Source: Bacilli bacterium (GTDB lineage Bacteria > Bacillota_I > Bacilli_A > RF39 > UBA660). From it: a DNA stretch of 58,653 nt. Numbering within the stretch: position 1 is the stretch's first letter; each line of letters starts with the position of its first letter. Location of the stretch: assembly GCA_017398945.1 (NCBI GenBank), contig JAFQES010000005.1, forward strand, positions 1 to 58,653, given 5' to 3'. A program made the translations under genes and the position numbers. A model generated the notes under the pieces. That model searched no databases and had not been told where the DNA came from. It saw nothing but the letters and a program-made list of their open reading frames with translations. Positions 2,536 through 51,852 of this stretch are shown piece after piece.

Positions 2536-3414
2536 ATGAAAAAGAAACAAGATATTTTAATTATTACTACAATAATTTTAATAATAGCTTATGTTTTTGT
2601 AAATAATCAAGAAATAACTACTATTATTAAAAATTCAGCTTTACTTTGGTTTAATAAAGTATTTCCCTCTTTACTTCCGATGTTTATTCTAAATGATTTA
2701 TTACTAAGTTATAATTTAGATTATTATATATGTAAATTATTAAAAAATAGTGGCTTAAAATTTTATGTAATTATAATGAGTTTACTTTCAGGAAGTCCAT
2801 CTAGCGCTCTTATTATAAAAAGATTGTATGAAAATGAAATAATTGATGAAAAAAATGCTTCTAAGCTATTATCATTTACTTATTTTTCTAGCCCTATATT
2901 TTTAATTACTATGCTATCATCATTATTTACCAATAAAACTATTATAATAAAAATTATTTTAATTCATTATTTATCTAATATAATTATAAGTTTATTCTAT
3001 AAGATAAAAATTAATAAAACTATTATTTATCGCCACCCAAGTAGTTTTGGAAATAATTTTACTCAAGCTATAAATAAAGCAATGAATACGTTAATTATGA
3101 TATTGGGAACACTTATTTTTTATATAATTATTTCTTATATTATAGAAAATGTTTTAAATCTAAATTCGATAAATAATTCCATAGTTAAGGGGTTACTAGA
3201 AGTTACCCAAGGACTTAATTTTTTAAATGAGCTATTCATTAATAATAAGTTAAAAGCTATTTTAGCTACAATATTTATTAATTTTGGAGGATTTTCTATT
3301 CATAGCCAAATAAAAAGTATCATTGCTGATACTTCTATTAATTATAAATATTTTCTCAAAGGAAGATTAGTTCAAACATTAATTAGCTTTGGTTTATTAT
3401 TAATATTGCCTTGA
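2536..3414 (+). CDS. ylbJ: YlbJ-like sporulation integral membrane protein (gate domain)
   Basis: A 292-residue polytopic membrane protein with about eight hydrophobic segments. The region FPSLLPMFILNDLL followed by LLSGSPSSALIIKRLYE and SFTYFSSPIFLITML matches the layout of the nucleoside-recognition/gate domain of YlbJ, including the small-residue GSPSSA stretch and the F-T/S-S-P loop. In Bacillus subtilis ylbJ is sigma-E dependent and needed for normal spores. A TTGGAG site lies 7 bases before the ATG. The 41-base gap to divergent ylbL must hold both promoters. The 3' end overlaps the convergent prepilin gene by 15 bases. Family assignment is from pattern, not alignment. Confidence 0.75.
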   Translation: MKKKQDILIITTIILIIAYVFVNNQEITTIIKNSALLWFNKVFPSLLPMFILNDLLLSYNLDYYICKLLKNSGLKFYVIIMSLLSGSPSSALIIKRLYENEIIDEKNASKLLSFTYFSSPIFLITMLSSLFTNKTIIIKIILIHYLSNIIISLFYKIKINKTIIYRHPSSFGNNFTQAINKAMNTLIMILGTLIFYIIISYIIENVLNLNSINNSIVKGLLEVTQGLNFLNELFINNKLKAILATIFINFGGFSIHSQIKSIIADTSINYKYFLKGRLVQTLISFGLLLILP

Positions 3415-4107
3415 GTATGATAAAGTATTTGAATATGGTAAACTAGTATCTCTTGTTTCCGAAAAAATGTCAGGGCAATTAGATGTATTAGTATCTATAT
3501 TATTTCTACATTTTCTTTCATTAGTAGTATCCGTATATAATAATTCTGTTTTAAAATATAGAGGAATATTTATGGTATCCAAAACCTTTTTATTATCGTC
3601 ATATAAGTATAAATTTATTTGACAGAATAAGCTATCAATATAGCGATGGCAATTTTCATTAATGTTTATTCCTTGAACTTCGGAATCAAACTTCCATATC
3701 TTGTCATCTACCCAAGCATTATTTTTTTTATATCTAACTCGCACAGTTCTTCCTTTATCATTAATGCCAATGGATTTTTCATACCAAACTCCATCCATAT
3801 ATACATCTAGTCTTATATAATGACCAGTTACTTTACTATAATCATTAGTGTCATTTCCATTGAACCATAAATCATTCCAAACCCTTACTTTAGTCACTTC
3901 TTCTCTGCCAAAATCGAAATCGTTCATTATAGACTTTTGAATACCTGTTTCAATATCAACGATTTTCATAAGATTATCAGTATAGGCATCATTATCATTT
4001 TTTTTACGTTGTAAATTGGTCATTAACCCATACATAAATGTCATCGCTACACTTAACATCGCAATAGTTATGATTAACTCAATCAACGTCATACCTTTGT
4101 TATTCAT
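3400..4107 (-). CDS. Prepilin-like protein (fourth gene of pseudopilin operon)
   Basis: The N-terminus MNNKGMTLIELIITIAML is a class III signal: a short basic leader, then G-M-T-L-I-E with the invariant Glu at +5 and a hydrophobic helix of about 22 residues. A prepilin peptidase would cut after the Gly. The remaining 200 residues are polar and beta-rich with a few Cys near the C-terminus (CRNNI, CPDIF), plausible disulphides. It starts within the stop codon of the preceding gene (TAATG, 1-base overlap), so it is translationally coupled. Similar to the minor pseudopilins of competence or type II secretion systems, but none of the usual ATPase or membrane partners is in the window. Confidence 0.8.
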   Translation of the reverse strand: MNNKGMTLIELIITIAMLSVAMTFMYGLMTNLQRKKNDNDAYTDNLMKIVDIETGIQKSIMNDFDFGREEVTKVRVWNDLWFNGNDTNDYSKVTGHYIRLDVYMDGVWYEKSIGINDKGRTVRVRYKKNNAWVDDKIWKFDSEVQGININENCHRYIDSLFCQINLYLYDDNKKVLDTINIPLYFKTELLYTDTTNERKCRNNIDTNTSNCPDIFSETRDTSLPYSNTLSYSRQY

Positions 4108-6176
4108 TAACAGCCTCCGGCCCTTACAATGTATGGATTACTTTCTGTTCCATTACCAGAACAACGCTTCAGATCAACATTTACATTGATAACCGGTCTA
4201 ATATACGCTCCGATATTTGAAACATATAAAACGTCATCAATTGTTTCTCCATATTTATCATTTAAAGTAGTATATAAACTATCTTTAGGATAGTCGTTTA
4301 ACTGAACTATTGTCCCTTCAGATTTTTTTGTTTGCTTAACTGCAAAATAATATGCTCCCATTCTATTAGTAAGACTTGTATAATCAGCATATGATAATGT
4401 CATAGTCCAAAACATTTCATCGCTAGAGGCGCGATCTAGTAAATAACTTTTTGTTCCTGTACTATTATATTGTAATCCAGCAAATATTGCTTCATCAGCT
4501 GATAATAATCCAATCGGATAAGTTAAATCTCCATTTCCTAAATATTCAAGTGAAGATCTATAGCTGTAACCACTATACCCTCCAGGAGTAGTAAGAGTTG
4601 CGTATTGGTAATCATAATTATTGACTCCATTAAACAGATTTTTACTTCCCATGTTAACATTATTTACATTTCGATAAAACATTATATAGCCTATTCCTCC
4701 AGCTTGTTCTTTTTTTGTATAATCATAGCTTTTTTTAGCAGTCTTTTCGCTATATTTAGTTCCAACTGCAACATAAGGTAAATAAGAATATTCAGAATAC
4801 TTTCCGCTAGCATTAGCATATAACCTTAAGCGTTCTTCATACCCAGAATTAACTTGACTTGATAAATTCGAAACATTATATCGACTTAAGTTGTATACTC
4901 TGTTATCACTATTGGATGCGATGCTACCAGTATTTGGGCAGATAAAACTTGCTGTGTTATTTTGAACAATTCTTTCCCATCCAGAATAATAATATCTTTC
5001 TGATTTTTGGAAAGAACTTTCTATATTATTTTTTATTGTTTCTAGCCACGATTCCTCATCTGTATCGTTATCTTCCTCACAATTTCCAAATGTTACTTTT
5101 CCAGTACCATCAACACTTGCACATTTTGTTCTGTTTTTATCTCCGCAGAAAATGGTTTCGTTACTCAATACATTTGTATATGCACTAAGACCACTTTGTG
5201 TATACCAAAGGTCTACTTTTTCTTTTATATCACTGCTATTTTGATTATCATACTTACTATCGTATCTATACAATAATGCCTCTTCATTATTCATATATCC
5301 AATATTATGAAGCAAATGAGCACCATATTGATTCTTTGGTGACGCACACTGTGCTTTAAAGAAATCTTCATAACCTTCTTCTATTTCTTGAGCAATATTA
5401 AGACTTGCTTTTTTTATGTTACATTCGATATTTAAACAAGTAAGACGTCCCCAAAACTCCGGACAACTTGCTGCACAATTTTTTGATCCTTCATCCAATT
5501 TGTCAACAACTTCACTTGTCACATTCATTGCCAATTCAATAGCTGCACACTTATTAGAATTATACGAACTTGAGTTATACTTTGTTGATGTAGCAGTTCC
5601 TATGAAATCTCCGTTATCCTTGTAAAGATTAACAGTAATATAATCATTTCCTTTTACTTTTGATTGTTTTGCTCCAGCAGATGAGTTATATTCACCTTGA
5701 TATATTAATCTTACAGTCTCATTTCCATTTATCCTTACTATTCTCCAAATATAATCTCCTAATTTTACATAGTTATTATCAACATCACCACGATAATATA
5801 AACTAAGATGTTGCCCTGTTGCACTTCTCCATCTAGTGTAATCATCTGGTGCAGCATACAAACCGCTTTCCTCTACGTCATCAGTAAGTTGAGCAGGTGT
5901 TAAGATATTTTCATTTATGTATAATTTCTTTGTATCAGGTGTACCTTGCGCTGTAAAATACCCTTTCTTAGTAGCTTCTGTTTTTTTTATACACTCAGCT
6001 AATGAATCCCCACTATCACATGGGTCAATATTATCTGCTGGTACATCTAATAATACTTTATCTTTTAAATATCTTTTATTAGTATATGAAGCAAGCATAG
6101 CTAACATTATTATTAAAAAGATAATAAAGAATGAATACATTATTGATATTGATATAAATCCATTTTTCTTTTTCAT
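4107..6176 (-). CDS. Large prepilin-like surface protein, 689 residues
   Basis: Begins MKKKNGFISISIMYSFFIIF, a basic leader, Gly-Phe and a hydrophobic helix of about 24 residues. This resembles a prepilin start but lacks Glu at +5, so processing by a prepilin peptidase is uncertain. The outside part is huge for a pilin: many Cys residues (for example CDSGDSLAEC, CAASCPEFWGRLTC), a DYIWRIVRINGNETVRLIYQG segment near 140-165, and aromatic, Ser/Asn-rich sequence. It looks like a tip adhesin carried on a pilin stalk. It directly follows the previous gene (stop 6177-6179, start 6176) and overlaps the next by one base. Confidence 0.75.
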   Translation of the reverse strand: MKKKNGFISISIMYSFFIIFLIIMLAMLASYTNKRYLKDKVLLDVPADNIDPCDSGDSLAECIKKTEATKKGYFTAQGTPDTKKLYINENILTPAQLTDDVEESGLYAAPDDYTRWRSATGQHLSLYYRGDVDNNYVKLGDYIWRIVRINGNETVRLIYQGEYNSSAGAKQSKVKGNDYITVNLYKDNGDFIGTATSTKYNSSSYNSNKCAAIELAMNVTSEVVDKLDEGSKNCAASCPEFWGRLTCLNIECNIKKASLNIAQEIEEGYEDFFKAQCASPKNQYGAHLLHNIGYMNNEEALLYRYDSKYDNQNSSDIKEKVDLWYTQSGLSAYTNVLSNETIFCGDKNRTKCASVDGTGKVTFGNCEEDNDTDEESWLETIKNNIESSFQKSERYYYSGWERIVQNNTASFICPNTGSIASNSDNRVYNLSRYNVSNLSSQVNSGYEERLRLYANASGKYSEYSYLPYVAVGTKYSEKTAKKSYDYTKKEQAGGIGYIMFYRNVNNVNMGSKNLFNGVNNYDYQYATLTTPGGYSGYSYRSSLEYLGNGDLTYPIGLLSADEAIFAGLQYNSTGTKSYLLDRASSDEMFWTMTLSYADYTSLTNRMGAYYFAVKQTKKSEGTIVQLNDYPKDSLYTTLNDKYGETIDDVLYVSNIGAYIRPVINVNVDLKRCSGNGTESNPYIVRAGGC

Positions 6177-6824
6177 TTAATAACCTTCTTTCAAATTAGG
6201 ATAATATATAAATGCCTGATAATCTGTTGCTATTATCCCTAAATCATCATTTGCGGTATTAGAATCTTGGAATTCTCCAATTATACGATATGTTTGATAT
6301 TTATCATTATAATTTTCACAAGCTCCTAAAGATAATATATATTCCATAAATTCATTTGTTAAAAGCGCTGCTTGAGCTTCCATTTCATTTTTTAATTTCT
6401 CATTATCAATCTTACCGCCATCAGCTGCTTTACATCTTAAAATTACTAATGTTTTTAAATTATATGTATTCGCCATAACATTAAACTTTGACTCCGTATT
6501 ATCACTATTAAGAACCCAATCCGTAAAACTTCTTGCCTCTCCATCACTTTGTTTATTAATATATGAAGCCAAAACTTTAAAATTATTATCATTACGATTA
6601 GTATCTATGAATACTTTATCAGCTGATAGATCGACATCATTCGCAATTAGCCATTCTTTAATATAAAATAGTGCATATCGATAACCTTTTTTTTCATAAT
6701 CTGTAACTCTTTTTTCGTTACCTAATAAATTTACAAATACATTATAAAGTAATAGTAACACTGTAATCAAAACAGTTAAAGTCACAATCGTTTCTACAAA
6801 CATAAATCCATTTTTCTTTTTCAT
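6177..6824 (-). CDS. Prepilin-like protein (second gene of pseudopilin operon)
   Basis: From the ATG at 6824 the protein reads MKKKNGFMFVETIVTLTVLI: basic leader, Gly-Phe, the conserved Glu at +5 and a hydrophobic helix. The remaining 190 residues are mixed helix and strand without a recognisable domain; two Cys (near CKAADGG and GACEN) may pair. The in-frame GTG nine bases further upstream overlaps the previous gene; the ATG lies one base after that gene's TAA stop and is the simpler start. Its size and position recall ComGD/ComGE-type minor pseudopilins. Confidence 0.78.
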   Translation of the reverse strand: MKKKNGFMFVETIVTLTVLITVLLLLYNVFVNLLGNEKRVTDYEKKGYRYALFYIKEWLIANDVDLSADKVFIDTNRNDNNFKVLASYINKQSDGEARSFTDWVLNSDNTESKFNVMANTYNLKTLVILRCKAADGGKIDNEKLKNEMEAQAALLTNEFMEYILSLGACENYNDKYQTYRIIGEFQDSNTANDDLGIIATDYQAFIYYPNLKEGY

Positions 6825-6825
6825 A

Positions 6826-7236
6826 TTATTCACACTTTATCCCATTAAATATAGCTGTATACTTTCCTTCATTATAATTAACTATTACATAATAATTAGC
6901 ACTAGAACTAGCGGTGGTCGCATTACAGTTCCAACCATTATCACAACTAGTATTATCAAATGGGTTTACTAAATCTTCTTTTTCAATATAACCATTTTTA
7001 ATCAACATAGCTAAAGTAATCCATCTAGCATTATCTTCATTAGCATTATTATACAGTCCATTTGTATCTATAACATATTCTATAGCTAAATTTTCAATTT
7101 GTTTTTTTAAATTAATACATTGGTTCTGCTTATTTTTCTTACTTACTTTAGAATAACTACCACCAGCAATTACTATAATTAAACTTAAAATTATAAGGAC
7201 CGCTAAAAGCTCAACTAATGTAAATCCTTTCTTCAT
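6826..7236 (-). CDS. Major-type prepilin (ComGC-like), first gene of the pseudopilin operon
   Basis: A compact 136-residue pilin beginning MKKGFTLVELLAVLIILSLI, the best type IV prepilin signal in the operon (Gly-Phe-Thr-Leu-Val-Glu). A helix-rich spine (about 25-60) is followed by a globular part with Cys residues (CDNGWNC, IKCE at the end). First in an operon of four pilin-like genes that overlap or abut. A TATACT-like box lies about 30 bases upstream. The length and motif resemble ComGC, the major competence pseudopilin, but the other com genes are not here, so a competence role is unproven. Confidence 0.82.
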   Translation of the reverse strand: MKKGFTLVELLAVLIILSLIIVIAGGSYSKVSKKNKQNQCINLKKQIENLAIEYVIDTNGLYNNANEDNARWITLAMLIKNGYIEKEDLVNPFDNTSCDNGWNCNATTASSSANYYVIVNYNEGKYTAIFNGIKCE

Positions 7237-7357: not shown

Positions 7358-7540
7358 ATGTGTCATAGACCTTTTGGTGGGGGATTATTTACTATCTTAG
7401 CTATCTTTGCTTTATGCGTCTTAATTTTTTATCAAGTTATTATTACATTAATACTTCCAATTAGATTTAATTGTTTTATTTTGCTTATTGAAGTATTTCT
7501 ACTATTTTTCTTGATTTTTAGAATAATATGGCCGAAGTAA
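7358..7540 (+). CDS. Small membrane protein, unknown function
   Basis: A 60-residue protein with a short polar start (MCHRPFGGG) and two hydrophobic segments (about 10-32 and 36-56) ending IIWPK. GGTGA lies 7 bases before the ATG and a TTATAAT-like box just upstream. The last 39 bases overlap the end of the convergent CotS-like gene. No family recognised. The good ribosome-binding site and membrane pattern make it plausible, but in an AT-rich genome hydrophobic open frames occur by chance. Confidence 0.5.
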   Translation: MCHRPFGGGLFTILAIFALCVLIFYQVIITLILPIRFNCFILLIEVFLLFFLIFRIIWPK

Positions 7541-8395
7541 TTCTTCTGTTTTAAAAACATAATCAAGTTTTTCTCTAATTTGTTTAGTATTTTGATACTC
7601 ATTTTCTAGCATTTTAATTTCTGGTGGTAAAGCAATTAGAATAAAAAAGAGTTTCTTTTCTTCTTCATTTAAAGGATATCTAGAAAAATACTTTTCTAAT
7701 AATGGTTCAAAATCATAATTAAAATATTCATTTTTATAAAGTTTAACAAGATCTATTATAGGTGTATCTACCTTAGCGTAGTCCCAACTTATTAAATAAT
7801 TATCTGAATTTCTAATCAAATGACTAACATCTAAATTATTATGAACAACGCTAACTCGTTGTTTTTTTTCATCTTTAACAACCTCAAACCATTCATTTAT
7901 TTCGCTTTCACAGAATTCTAAAGAAGAAAATATTTTAGATATATTTCTCATTAAAGTATACTCACTTGGGCTAAGATATTTTTTTGGTAAATAGATATCA
8001 TAATAGTTATTATATACATTTCTTAAATATTCAATATTATTTTTAATATTTTCATATATTTCTTGATATTTGTCTTCAGTTACTTCTTTATGATAACTTG
8101 TTTTATTATGTAGCATACTTACTAAATCAATTAAATCATCCATTTTTTGCTCTTTTGGCATTGGTACATCTTCTATCATTTCATACACATTTAAATCTTT
8201 TCTAGAGTCATCTATTAACTTAGGAAAATTATAAAAGCTCCTACTTTGTAAATAATTATATAAACTTCTAATATCATTATGTCGTTCTTTAACTACAAAA
8301 TCCCCACTTGTAGTTTGTAAAATAGTTGTTTTTCCTTTAATTGTATATTTTAAGGGTTTATAAATACTTTTTAAAACTTCTAATGAATTATTCAT
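7502..8395 (-). CDS. CotS/YsxE-family spore-coat kinase-like protein
   Basis: A 297-residue protein with the aminoglycoside-phosphotransferase/CotS fold: an N-terminal lobe with VVKERH, then a catalytic-loop-like VVHNNLDVSHLI (about 192-203) and a metal-site-like SWDYAKVDTPIIDLVKLYK (about 212-230). Asn-Asn replaces the usual Gly-Asp before the loop, and the key Asp lies in NLD, so activity may be reduced. In Bacillus ysxE, a CotS paralogue, follows spoVID; here the gene follows a spoVID-like gene with an 8-base overlap, the same arrangement. The context argues strongly for a spore-coat role in the mother cell. Confidence 0.75.
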   Translation of the reverse strand: MNNSLEVLKSIYKPLKYTIKGKTTILQTTSGDFVVKERHNDIRSLYNYLQSRSFYNFPKLIDDSRKDLNVYEMIEDVPMPKEQKMDDLIDLVSMLHNKTSYHKEVTEDKYQEIYENIKNNIEYLRNVYNNYYDIYLPKKYLSPSEYTLMRNISKIFSSLEFCESEINEWFEVVKDEKKQRVSVVHNNLDVSHLIRNSDNYLISWDYAKVDTPIIDLVKLYKNEYFNYDFEPLLEKYFSRYPLNEEEKKLFFILIALPPEIKMLENEYQNTKQIREKLDYVFKTEELLRPYYSKNQEK

Positions 8396-9122
8396 TATCT
8401 TCTTCAGGAATTATGAGTTTATCTCCTGCTTTTATTTCTGATACATCATTATAATTTGATAAAATACTCATATTGGAATTATACATTGTACACACTGCTT
8501 CAATATTATCATTTTCTTTTAATATATGCACATGATAAGTTTGATACGTATCATCATCAGTATTTACTGATTCAATTATGGTATTTTCTTCTTGTTTATC
8601 TTCAATATTTCTTTCTTCTATATTATTTTTCTCAATCACTTTAGTTTCTGATACCATTTTATCTTCTATCATTTCTCTATCTTCTTCAATCGGTAACTCA
8701 ATTTCGGATATTTCTTTTTCTGGCTTTACAAAAATTTCTTTTTGTTCTTCTATTTTTTCAAAAATTATTTCTCTTTCTTCGTCAACTTCTTCCTTTTTTA
8801 TTTCGGTTCCTTTTAAAGCTAGTTCAATTATAATCTTTAAAGTATCATTCTTTAGAATTTCATAAGTAAAATCCGTTATTTCAAATACAATTGTATCTTT
8901 ATCAATATTGTCTGCTATATCTATTGAAAAAGGCAATGTATATTCAAATGGTTCTTTATTAACACTTAATTCATGAGTTTTGTACTCTCCACTCACAATA
9001 AAATTCCCTAGTATTTCATTATCATTAATGTCCATTTCATGTTCCAATGAAATGCTATAAATCTCCGCTATTTTTGTTTTAAAAGTAATTTCTTTTGTAT
9101 AAGGTATTACAAAATCCATCAT
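8388..9122 (-). CDS. spoVID: SpoVID-like spore coat morphogenetic protein with C-terminal LysM
   Basis: The N-terminal 105 residues match the SpoVID beta domain in order: a YSISLEHE strand, a VSGEYKTHE segment, YTLPFSIDI, then FEITDFTYEILKNDTLKIIIELALKG. A long Glu/Lys-rich linker follows (about 108-190). The C-terminus is a LysM domain (about 193-244, starting YHVHILKENDNIEAVC and ending KAGDKLIIPEE). SpoVID anchors and spreads the coat around the forespore and its LysM binds lipid II. It is shorter than Bacillus SpoVID (about 575 residues), mostly in the linker. GGAGG lies 6 bases upstream of the ATG. A sigma-E-like promoter precedes it. Confidence 0.8.
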   Translation of the reverse strand: MMDFVIPYTKEITFKTKIAEIYSISLEHEMDINDNEILGNFIVSGEYKTHELSVNKEPFEYTLPFSIDIADNIDKDTIVFEITDFTYEILKNDTLKIIIELALKGTEIKKEEVDEEREIIFEKIEEQKEIFVKPEKEISEIELPIEEDREMIEDKMVSETKVIEKNNIEERNIEDKQEENTIIESVNTDDDTYQTYHVHILKENDNIEAVCTMYNSNMSILSNYNDVSEIKAGDKLIIPEEDNE

Positions 9123-51462: not shown

Positions 51463-51852
51463 TTATTTACAAGCTTCACTTTCTATTGGACCCATTTTAC
51501 CAGTTAACTCTGTTTTATATCTACTATCTTTAGTAATTTTTATTGTACACTCTCCCATAGACATATTGTTTTTAGGATTTTTCAAACAATCATTACTATC
51601 AAGACCTTCGTCAGGAGATACATAACCATTTTCACAAAGCTTATTAATAGTAATCGTTGTTCCGGATGTTAGATTCATCTTTTCAGCATATAATATCGCA
51701 TTTTCTTTAATTAATTTAATTTTAGCATCATACATATTACCTTTAATTTTATTAGATGTTGCTATAATTGCAGGCGTTGCTATAGTAGCTAATAACGCTA
51801 AAATTGCAATAACTCCTAATAGTTCCACTAATGTAAATCCATTTTTCTTCAT
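51463..51852 (-). CDS. Prepilin-like protein
   Basis: A 129-residue pilin starting MKKNGFTLVELLGVIAILAL, a clean type IV prepilin signal (Gly-Phe-Thr-Leu-Val-Glu), then an alpha-helical spine and a C-terminal part with Cys pairs (LCENGYV, DSNDCLKN, GECTI, SEACK), as in ComGC- or TcpA-like proteins. It stands alone between der and engB. One of six prepilin-like proteins in the window. Confidence 0.82.
   Translation of the reverse strand: MKKNGFTLVELLGVIAILALLATIATPAIIATSNKIKGNMYDAKIKLIKENAILYAEKMNLTSGTTITINKLCENGYVSPDEGLDSNDCLKNPKNNMSMGECTIKITKDSRYKTELTGKMGPIESEACK

What the first reader, a model, noticed from the sequence alone, without database searches (positions are those of the whole stretch)
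3400..7236. Four-gene pseudopilin operon ending in a 689-residue pilin-anchored protein
Four genes, all with class III or near-class III N-termini, overlap or abut. The third is huge (689 residues) with many Cys and lacks the Glu at +5. This suggests a pilus with a large tip protein. No assembly ATPase, membrane platform or prepilin peptidase is visible in the window. The tip protein may be exported in a new way or depend on a distant com locus.
Basis: partly seen in the sequence, partly recalled or inferred. Interest (0 to 1): 0.5.

Follow-up and report, generated by a model that had tools for sequence, protein, structure and literature searches.

The report
Pilus tip gene with lectin-like head
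An uncultured gut bacterium carries a small gene set for the tip of a hair-like pilus, in which one tip subunit has grown a large, probably sticky, lectin-like head; relatives swap that head between subunits, so it looks like an interchangeable gripping tool rather than a new export route.

Summary
Four coupled minus-strand genes at 3400-7236 encode prepilin-like proteins. Three have Glu at mature position 5 (E5); the third (689 aa) has Ser. The operon does not end with the 689-aa gene: a fourth pilin follows it.

The machinery missing from the window lies elsewhere in the 1.21 Mb genome: PilB-type ATPase, adjacent PilC and PilD, and ComEA/ComEC. No new export route is needed.

In 32 operon loci, exactly one subunit lacks E5 (S/T in 32/32) and sits beside pilins with E5. 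This is the arrangement of GspHIJK, ComGD-GG and S. sanguinis PilABC tip complexes. The E5-less subunit ranges from a headless 47 residues to over 600, with different heads. The window's head is a DUF6273-like (C-type-lectin) domain with large insertions.

Best reading: a tip-cap modular pilin with an adhesive lectin-like head. None of 31 such caps matches the standard prepilin models, so motif-based censuses would miss them. In relatives the head sits on other tip pilins, and in one genome (L114) on a canonical pilin that is the target of a diversity-generating retroelement. The window's genus lacks the reverse transcriptase. Tip placement and binding are inferred, not shown.

The parts
6826..7236 (-). 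Gene 1: 136-aa prepilin, ComGC-like N-terminus (G|FTLVE). Seen in the window, L070 and L072, not in the other operon loci read.
6177..6833 (-). Gene 2: 218-aa minor pilin with E5 (G|FMFVE); homolog of the 'GFVFxET' pilin present in 32 of 32 operon loci.
4107..6176 (-). Gene 3: 689-aa E5-less pilin (G|FISIS, Ser at +5), proposed tip cap with grafted head.
6042..6176 (-). Prepilin signal and alpha-1 helix of gene 3 (residues 1-45). AF2 helix 4-44; pLDDT block means 63/81/68/42.
4110..5867 (-). Head of gene 3 (residues 104-689): DUF6273-like, C-type-lectin-type core with two large insertions.
   Evidence: held-out profile E = 3.5e-32
4557..5684 (-). Approximate span that holds the two large insertions (about residues 165-310 and 345-540); 10 of the 14 Cys lie in this span.
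   Evidence: alignment A6; Cys positions
3400..4107 (-). Gene 4: 235-aa minor pilin with E5 (G|MTLIE); homolog has E5 in 29 of 29 operon loci where it was found.

Best explanation
The operon encodes the minor-pilin complex that starts and caps the genome's type IV pilus. Gene products 2 and 4 are E5 minor pilins. Gene product 3 is the E5-less cap, the role of GspK or ComGG, but with a large DUF6273-like, C-type-lectin-type head grafted on its C-terminus. Steps: (1) the distant PilD cleaves the prepilins after Gly-6 (inferred; peptidase gene shown); (2) gene product 3, having no E5 to pair with a subunit above it, sits topmost with products 2 and 4 below (inferred from known tip complexes); (3) PilB and PilC extend a pilus of another pilin beneath it (inferred; genes shown); (4) the head is displayed at the pilus end and binds a ligand, most likely a glycan or surface protein of a gut neighbour or host (inferred). 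In relatives the same cap carries other heads or none, so the head is an exchangeable module.
For: Four coupled prepilin-like genes. Position 5 is S/T in the cap in 32/32 operon loci, E in gene 2 in 32/32 and E in gene 4 in 29/29; 31 of 31 cap N-termini have S (29) or T (2), with G6, Y14, F16 and F20 invariant. Machinery: PilD 263 aa (A24_N_bact plus Peptidase_A24), PilC 529 aa (two T2SSF), PilB-type ATPase 430 aa (T2SSE, 412 bits). T2SSF is in 36 of 37 genomes of the family. Head: a profile built without the window or its near homolog L013 finds the window protein at E = 3.5e-32 in collinear pieces at 121-204, 303-417, 472-608 and 653-685, with 0 hits on reversed sequences. An own-genome relative passes the DUF6273 cut-off (24.4 vs 23.5 bits). 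DUF6273 was modelled as C-type lectin in print (PMC10743442, passages). Head exchange: cap sizes and heads vary under one N-terminus. Known precedent: S. sanguinis PilA/B/C and pneumococcal ComGG (PMC9934059, PMC8727766, passages).
Against: The cap family matches neither N_methyl nor TIGR02532 (0 of 31), so pilin identity rests on motif, context and conservation. AF2 did not model the window protein (pLDDT 36.9), and the ortholog's confident head had no Foldseek match at E <= 0.001, so a pilin-type beta-sheet was not shown. DUF6273 itself was not called on the window protein. In S. sanguinis the heads sit on E5 pilins and the E5-less PilA is plain, so head-on-cap is not the studied arrangement. 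A good share of the cap-like genes read are solitary, away from other pilins (10 of 30, 9 of 20). No expression, localisation or binding data exist.
Confidence: 0.68

Rival explanations
1. The operon makes the DNA-capture tip of a ComG-like transformation pilus. The large head is secondary: it may anchor the pilus or shield it, while genes 1, 2 and 4 bind DNA.
For: ComEA (by eye) and ComEC (read as two ORFs) are in the genome. Genes 1, 2 and 4 resemble ComGC/GD/GE/GF weakly. Three T2SSE matches pass the cut-off, best named PilB, TadA and VirB11, none PilT. In S. sanguinis the DNA site lies on ComGD-ComGF at the tip (PMC12153270, passages).
Against: A 600-residue lectin-type head on the cap is not part of any Com pilus described in the passages read. 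The head also occurs on many non-pilin surface proteins of the same family, which points to ligand binding. comEC is interrupted in this assembly.
Confidence: 0.2
2. Gene 3 is a single-pass membrane surface protein that only shares an operon with pilins; it is never built into a pilus.
For: No prepilin model matches it. The same head is found on single-membrane-anchored proteins (53 of 82 head-bearing ORFs were classed neither pilin nor cap nor open-ended), including two in this genome. Solitary cap-like genes exist.
Against: Gly before an apolar helix with S/T5 is conserved in 31/31, stronger than a plain anchor needs; linkage with E5 pilins in 32 loci; a headless 47-residue version sits in the same operon (L182), which makes little sense for a mere anchor.
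Confidence: 0.1
3. The operon is a pseudopilus of a type II-like secretion system that pushes out soluble cargo, with gene 3 as a GspK-like tip.
For: The GspIJK-like logic (one E5-less cap) fits a pseudopilus as well as a pilus; PilB and PilC score close to GspE and GspF.
Against: Relatives are titled as Bacilli, which are monoderm, so no secretin step is expected (recalled); a big ligand-binding head at the tip is better suited to display than to pushing.
Confidence: 0.05

Closest known systems
Streptococcus sanguinis type 4 pilus tip complex PilA/PilB/PilC (modular pilins)
   Same: Operon of three minor pilins, one lacking Glu5; large ligand-binding modules grafted on pilin stalks; monoderm; proposed tip complex (PMC9934059, PMC8179133; passages, and section 9 of the latter).
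   Different: There the E5-less PilA is plain and the E5-type pilins PilB (vWA) and PilC (ConA-like) carry modules. Here the E5-less cap itself carries the head in 11 of 32 operon loci, and the module is DUF6273-like.
Competence pilus minor pilins ComGD-ComGE-ComGF-ComGG
   Same: Minor pilins in an operon, the single E5-less one (ComGG) essential for assembly and proposed at the tip (PMC8727766, passages).
   Different: ComGG has no large grafted head (as far as the passages read tell). Here ATPase, platform and peptidase are far away in the genome, not in the operon.
Type II secretion GspI-GspJ-GspK tip
   Same: A bulky, E5-less K subunit caps its partners (described in PMC9934059, passages).
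   Different: No match to a GspK model was found; the head is of another kind.
DUF6273 / C-type-lectin variable proteins of diversity-generating retroelements (tentaclins and Faecalibacterium prophage targets)
   Same: Same head family by motif and profile; its C-terminal end is the variable region (PMC10743442, PMC11792537; passages).
   Different: Those heads are on phage proteins. In the window's genus there is no reverse transcriptase (0 of 3 genomes).

Membership tests
Modular type IV pilin | Class III prepilin signal (Gly at -1, apolar helix) | tested here: met
   K/N-G|F plus about 20 apolar residues; G6 invariant in 31 of 31. By motif only; no signal-peptide predictor was at hand.
Modular type IV pilin | Match to the N_methyl / IPR012902 motif used in the published census | tested here: not met
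   0 of 31 caps match PF07963 at E <= 0.01 or TIGR02532 at E <= 0.05. The models centre on GFxxxE, which the cap lacks; that IPR012902 rests on these models is recalled.
Modular type IV pilin | Extra functional module grafted on the pilin part | tested here: met
   Held-out head profile E = 3.5e-32; headless form in the same operon context (L182).
Modular type IV pilin | Pilin fold: alpha-1 helix against a small beta-sheet | tested here: inconclusive
   Helix only in the window model; the ortholog model has helix 4-50 and a head with no clear PDB match.
Modular type IV pilin | Assembly into a filament by a T4P machine | not testable with these tools
   Machine genes present; assembly needs experiment.
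E5-less tip cap (GspK / ComGG / PilA type) | Only E5-less subunit in an operon of E5 minor pilins | tested here: met
   32 of 32 operon loci.
E5-less tip cap (GspK / ComGG / PilA type) | Located at the filament tip | not testable with these tools
   Inferred from the absence of E5 and from analogy.
DUF6273 domain (PF19789) | Scores over the Pfam cut-off | tested here: not met
   Window protein: 0 families. Own-genome relative L045: 24.4 bits vs 23.5; 3 of 13 aligned heads hit at E <= 1. Hence 'DUF6273-like'.
DUF6273 domain (PF19789) | C-type-lectin fold | tested here: inconclusive
   Window model failed; profile search of PDB sequences gave nothing better than E = 0.029. The fold is taken from PMC10743442 (passages).
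DGR target | Reverse transcriptase in the genome, TR/VR pair beside it | tested here: not met
   No RVT_1 match in the window's genome or in two others of its genus. Met in L112-L115 (reverse transcriptases of L112 and L114 checked).

The most novel reading that the evidence does not exclude
In this family of uncultured gut Bacilli the type IV pilus tip is a tool-changer: a hidden class of E5-less cap pilins, unseen by prepilin models, receives exchangeable heads (DUF6273-like lectin, laminin-G, ALK/LTK glycine-rich), and the lectin head also moves to the neighbouring E5 tip pilins. In at least one relative the same head sits on a canonical type IV pilin and is actively rewritten by a diversity-generating retroelement, so that the binding face of a pilus subunit is hypermutated by reverse transcription; the window's genus keeps a frozen form.
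Probability: 0.4. Interest if true: 0.75.

Novelty: new variant of a known kind. Interest (0 to 1): 0.5.

Why it matters
If true, it gives a rule for finding tip-cap pilins that motif searches miss (one E5-less, S/T5 subunit beside E5 pilins), and a natural series of the same operon with headless, small-headed and very large-headed caps. That makes the open question of how tip adhesins are displayed by monoderm type IV pili testable by comparison. The link between pilus heads and retroelement-mutated lectin domains suggests a way for uncultured gut bacteria to change what they grip.

Tried and rejected
Structure of the window protein: AF2 on a 10-row alignment gave pLDDT 36.9 and pTM 0.22; nothing was searched with it. 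Fold of the syntenic ortholog head (L091): Foldseek gave no match at E <= 0.001; VIA-align gave Z 5.3 only for the helix (S. islandicus archaeal flagellar filament, 48 residues) and Z 4.6 and below for other rows, among them an EF-P-like small barrel over about 60 residues. Both were treated as no result. Profile comparison of the small-headed caps (A4) with the lectin-type heads (A6): probability 18%, only the last 35 columns align, so common origin of these heads is not claimed. Solved-structure sequence searches: nothing useful. New export route: rejected because the ordinary machinery is present. DGR action on the window gene: rejected, no reverse transcriptase in the genus. Of 24 reverse-transcriptase loci scanned, 9 gave a TR/VR-like pair and 15 gave none; only the four chosen because a head lay on the same contig had head-type targets, and only one of the 24 (L114) has a target with a prepilin N-terminus. 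A possible second, remote target pilin in that genome (L158) has 11 non-A differences from the TR and is not claimed. The head on gene 4 of L095 is found only with the profile that includes the window (E = 1.2e-08), not with the held-out profile. The promoter scan found no more promoter-like sites than shuffled sequence.

Full report
WHAT IS THERE. Four minus-strand genes lie end to end at 7236-6826 (136 aa), 6833-6177 (218 aa), 6176-4107 (689 aa) and 4107-3400 (235 aa), overlapping by 8, 0 and 1 bases. Genes 1 and 4 pass the Pfam prepilin motif; gene 2 has the motif by eye (G|FMFVE); gene 3 matches nothing in Pfam or NCBIfam. Mature position 5 is E, E, S, E. The 689-aa protein has 14 Cys, as does its same-genus homolog. 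It is the third gene, not the last.

THE MACHINERY IS ELSEWHERE IN THE GENOME. The window is the start of contig 1 of a 1.21 Mb, 35-contig assembly, 95% complete. Contig 5 carries a prepilin peptidase (263 aa, both Peptidase A24 parts) directly beside a PilC/GspF (529 aa, two T2SSF domains); contig 13 carries a PilB/GspE-type ATPase (430 aa, T2SSE 412 bits). ComEA (by eye) and ComEC lie further along contig 5; ComEC reads as two ORFs. There are also a Tad-type set (contig 5) and a third ATPase set (contig 15). Six N_methyl prepilins were found genome-wide: two in this operon, one at window 51463-51852, two in tandem on contig 6 and one on contig 11. So gene 3 needs no new export route.

THE OPERON IN RELATIVES. 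A scan of the collection of 84,980 species genomes with the most conserved cap stretch gave 339 stretches, of which 30 were confirmed relatives. Their records are titled as uncultured Bacilli, Tenericutes, Erysipelotrichaceae, Mycoplasma or unnamed bacteria; some titles name goat rectum or water-deer cecum. Of the 30, 20 lie in an operon with E5 pilins and 10 are solitary. With the window, G036 (L060) and 10 further distinct loci (11 operons there, one of which, L189, is the same contig as L085 by length and gene sizes), I have 32 operon loci; L071 and L072 come from one genome. The 20 loci were picked by me from the 76 genomes with a match. The cap has S or T at +5 in 32 of 32, gene 2 has E in 32 of 32, gene 4 has E in 29 of 29 (L072 and L197 are cut; L188 has no pilin after its gene 2). 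The solitary cap-like proteins never have E at +5 (0 of 9), though some have Y, A or G. Many loci share the flanks of the window: YsxE-like and SpoVID-like genes on one side, YlbJ-like and a Lon/PDZ protease on the other. The order varies: gene 2 before the cap in the window's genus and some others, cap first elsewhere. Gene 1 is seen only in the window and its close relatives (L070, L072).

A CLASS THAT MOTIF SEARCHES MISS. Of 31 caps (window), none matches PF07963 at E <= 0.01 or TIGR02532 at E <= 0.05. The published census of modular pilins searched for the IPR012902 motif (PMC8179133, section 9 read), so caps of this type would probably have been passed over. In a sample of the window's order 76 of 193 genomes have a cap N-terminus at E <= 1e-6, in open frames of 52 to 752 codons.

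THE HEAD. The window protein alone finds related stretches in 27 of 60 relatives, mostly at residues 123-203 and 544-599. A profile of 13 heads (A6; it contains the window) matches 37 of 37 genomes of the family and 0 of 23 others of the class. A version without the window and its near homolog L013 still finds the window protein at E = 3.5e-32, in four collinear pieces, and nothing in reversed sequences. The core is therefore one domain, opened by two large insertions; the span that holds them contains 10 of the 14 Cys. A relative in the same genome passes the DUF6273 cut-off. Papers report that DUF6273 models as a C-type lectin and is the variable domain of phage retroelement targets (PMC10743442, PMC11792537; passages only). 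My own structural test did not settle the fold.

HEADS ARE EXCHANGED. Among the 32 operon loci, the A6 head is on the cap in 11, on gene 2 in 4 (L060, where it is doubled, L098, L191, L197) and on gene 4 in 1 (L095, full profile only). L098 and L095 carry it on two subunits each. Other caps carry a laminin-G lectin domain (L192 over the cut-off, L188 just under; also solitary L057), or an ALK/LTK glycine-rich domain (solitary L184, L193, L194). The cap ortholog L091 has a confident predicted head (pLDDT 86.4) with no clear match in the PDB. In 82 head-bearing ORFs found in the loci held (a sample chosen by me, not random), 12 were classed as caps (one, L051, is a fragment of the window's own protein), 9 as E5 pilins, 8 were open at the 5' end and 53 were other, mostly single-anchor proteins by eye.

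A RETROELEMENT LINK IN RELATIVES. Reverse transcriptase matches occur in 22 of 37 genomes of the family but in none of the three of the window's genus. At four loci picked because a head and a reverse transcriptase share a contig, a template/variable repeat pair lies in the expected place, the variable copy being in the C-terminal end of the head, and mismatches fall on template adenines: 11 of 11, 19 of 19, 11 of 12 and 15 of 15 in 80-base windows (the windows were selected by the scan, so the p-values there are not unbiased). In L114 the target is a 669-aa canonical type IV pilin (N_methyl 30.5 bits), followed by a MutS-domain-I protein, a bAvd-like protein (36.6 bits, cut-off 40) and the reverse transcriptase. 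Pilin-like retroelement targets have been mentioned in print: PMC6642488 speaks of putative pilin structures among DUF1566-linked targets and PMC6199706 of homology to a Bacteroides pilin tip (passages). No paper in the library holds both 'diversity-generating retroelement' and 'prepilin'; ten hold it with 'pilin', of which I searched three for the word.

HOW IT WORKS, MOST LIKELY. In known systems one E5-less minor pilin is placed first or topmost and its partners dock beneath (PMC9934059, PMC8727766; passages). By the same logic gene product 3 should sit at the very tip with products 2 and 4 below, and its head should be the part that first touches a surface. Shown here: the genes, their conservation, the machinery, the head family. 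Inferred: cleavage, tip position, binding. The rival that this is the tip of a DNA-uptake pilus cannot be excluded, since com genes are present; the two roles may coexist.

VERDICT. A new variant of a known kind: modular pilins, here with the module on the E5-less cap.

Noticed in passing
L114:528-4715 (G003:C8): Complete diversity-generating retroelement whose target is a 669-aa canonical type IV pilin with a DUF6273-like head; cassette of MutS-domain-I protein, bAvd-like protein, reverse transcriptase and template repeat.
   Followed up: partly
L112, L113, L115: Three more retroelements in the same family with variable repeats in the C-terminal end of DUF6273-like heads; the L112 and L115 targets have no prepilin N-terminus, the L113 target is cut by the contig end.
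   Followed up: partly
window 2536-3414, 7502-8395, 8388-9122: YlbJ-, YsxE/CotS- and SpoVID-like genes, all named after sporulation, flank the pilus operon in a 1.2 Mb genome; all score below their curated cut-offs.
   Followed up: no
L044:3447-10501 (G000:C15): A third GspE-type ATPase with two TadB/TadC-like membrane proteins (by eye) and a 987-aa Cys-rich secreted protein; kind of system not worked out.
   Followed up: no
L042:9243-14072 (G000:C5): Tad-type pilus locus (TadA/B/C, two TadE-like proteins, a short Flp-like prepilin, partly by eye) in the same genome.
   Followed up: no
L053/L054 (G002) = L071/L072: One genome has two contig ends that each carry part of the operon (gene1-gene2-cap cut at the end; end of a head, then gene2-cap-gene4), as if gene2-cap were duplicated; adjacency not shown.
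   Followed up: no
L184:3811-6027, L193:2265-4175, L194:2854-4128: Solitary E5-less cap-like proteins with an ALK/LTK glycine-rich domain (Pfam PF12810), otherwise known from animal receptor kinases (the latter recalled).
   Followed up: no
L178:4628-6718 (G000:C5): comEC reads as two ORFs in this assembly; whether that is real or an assembly fault is unknown.
   Followed up: no
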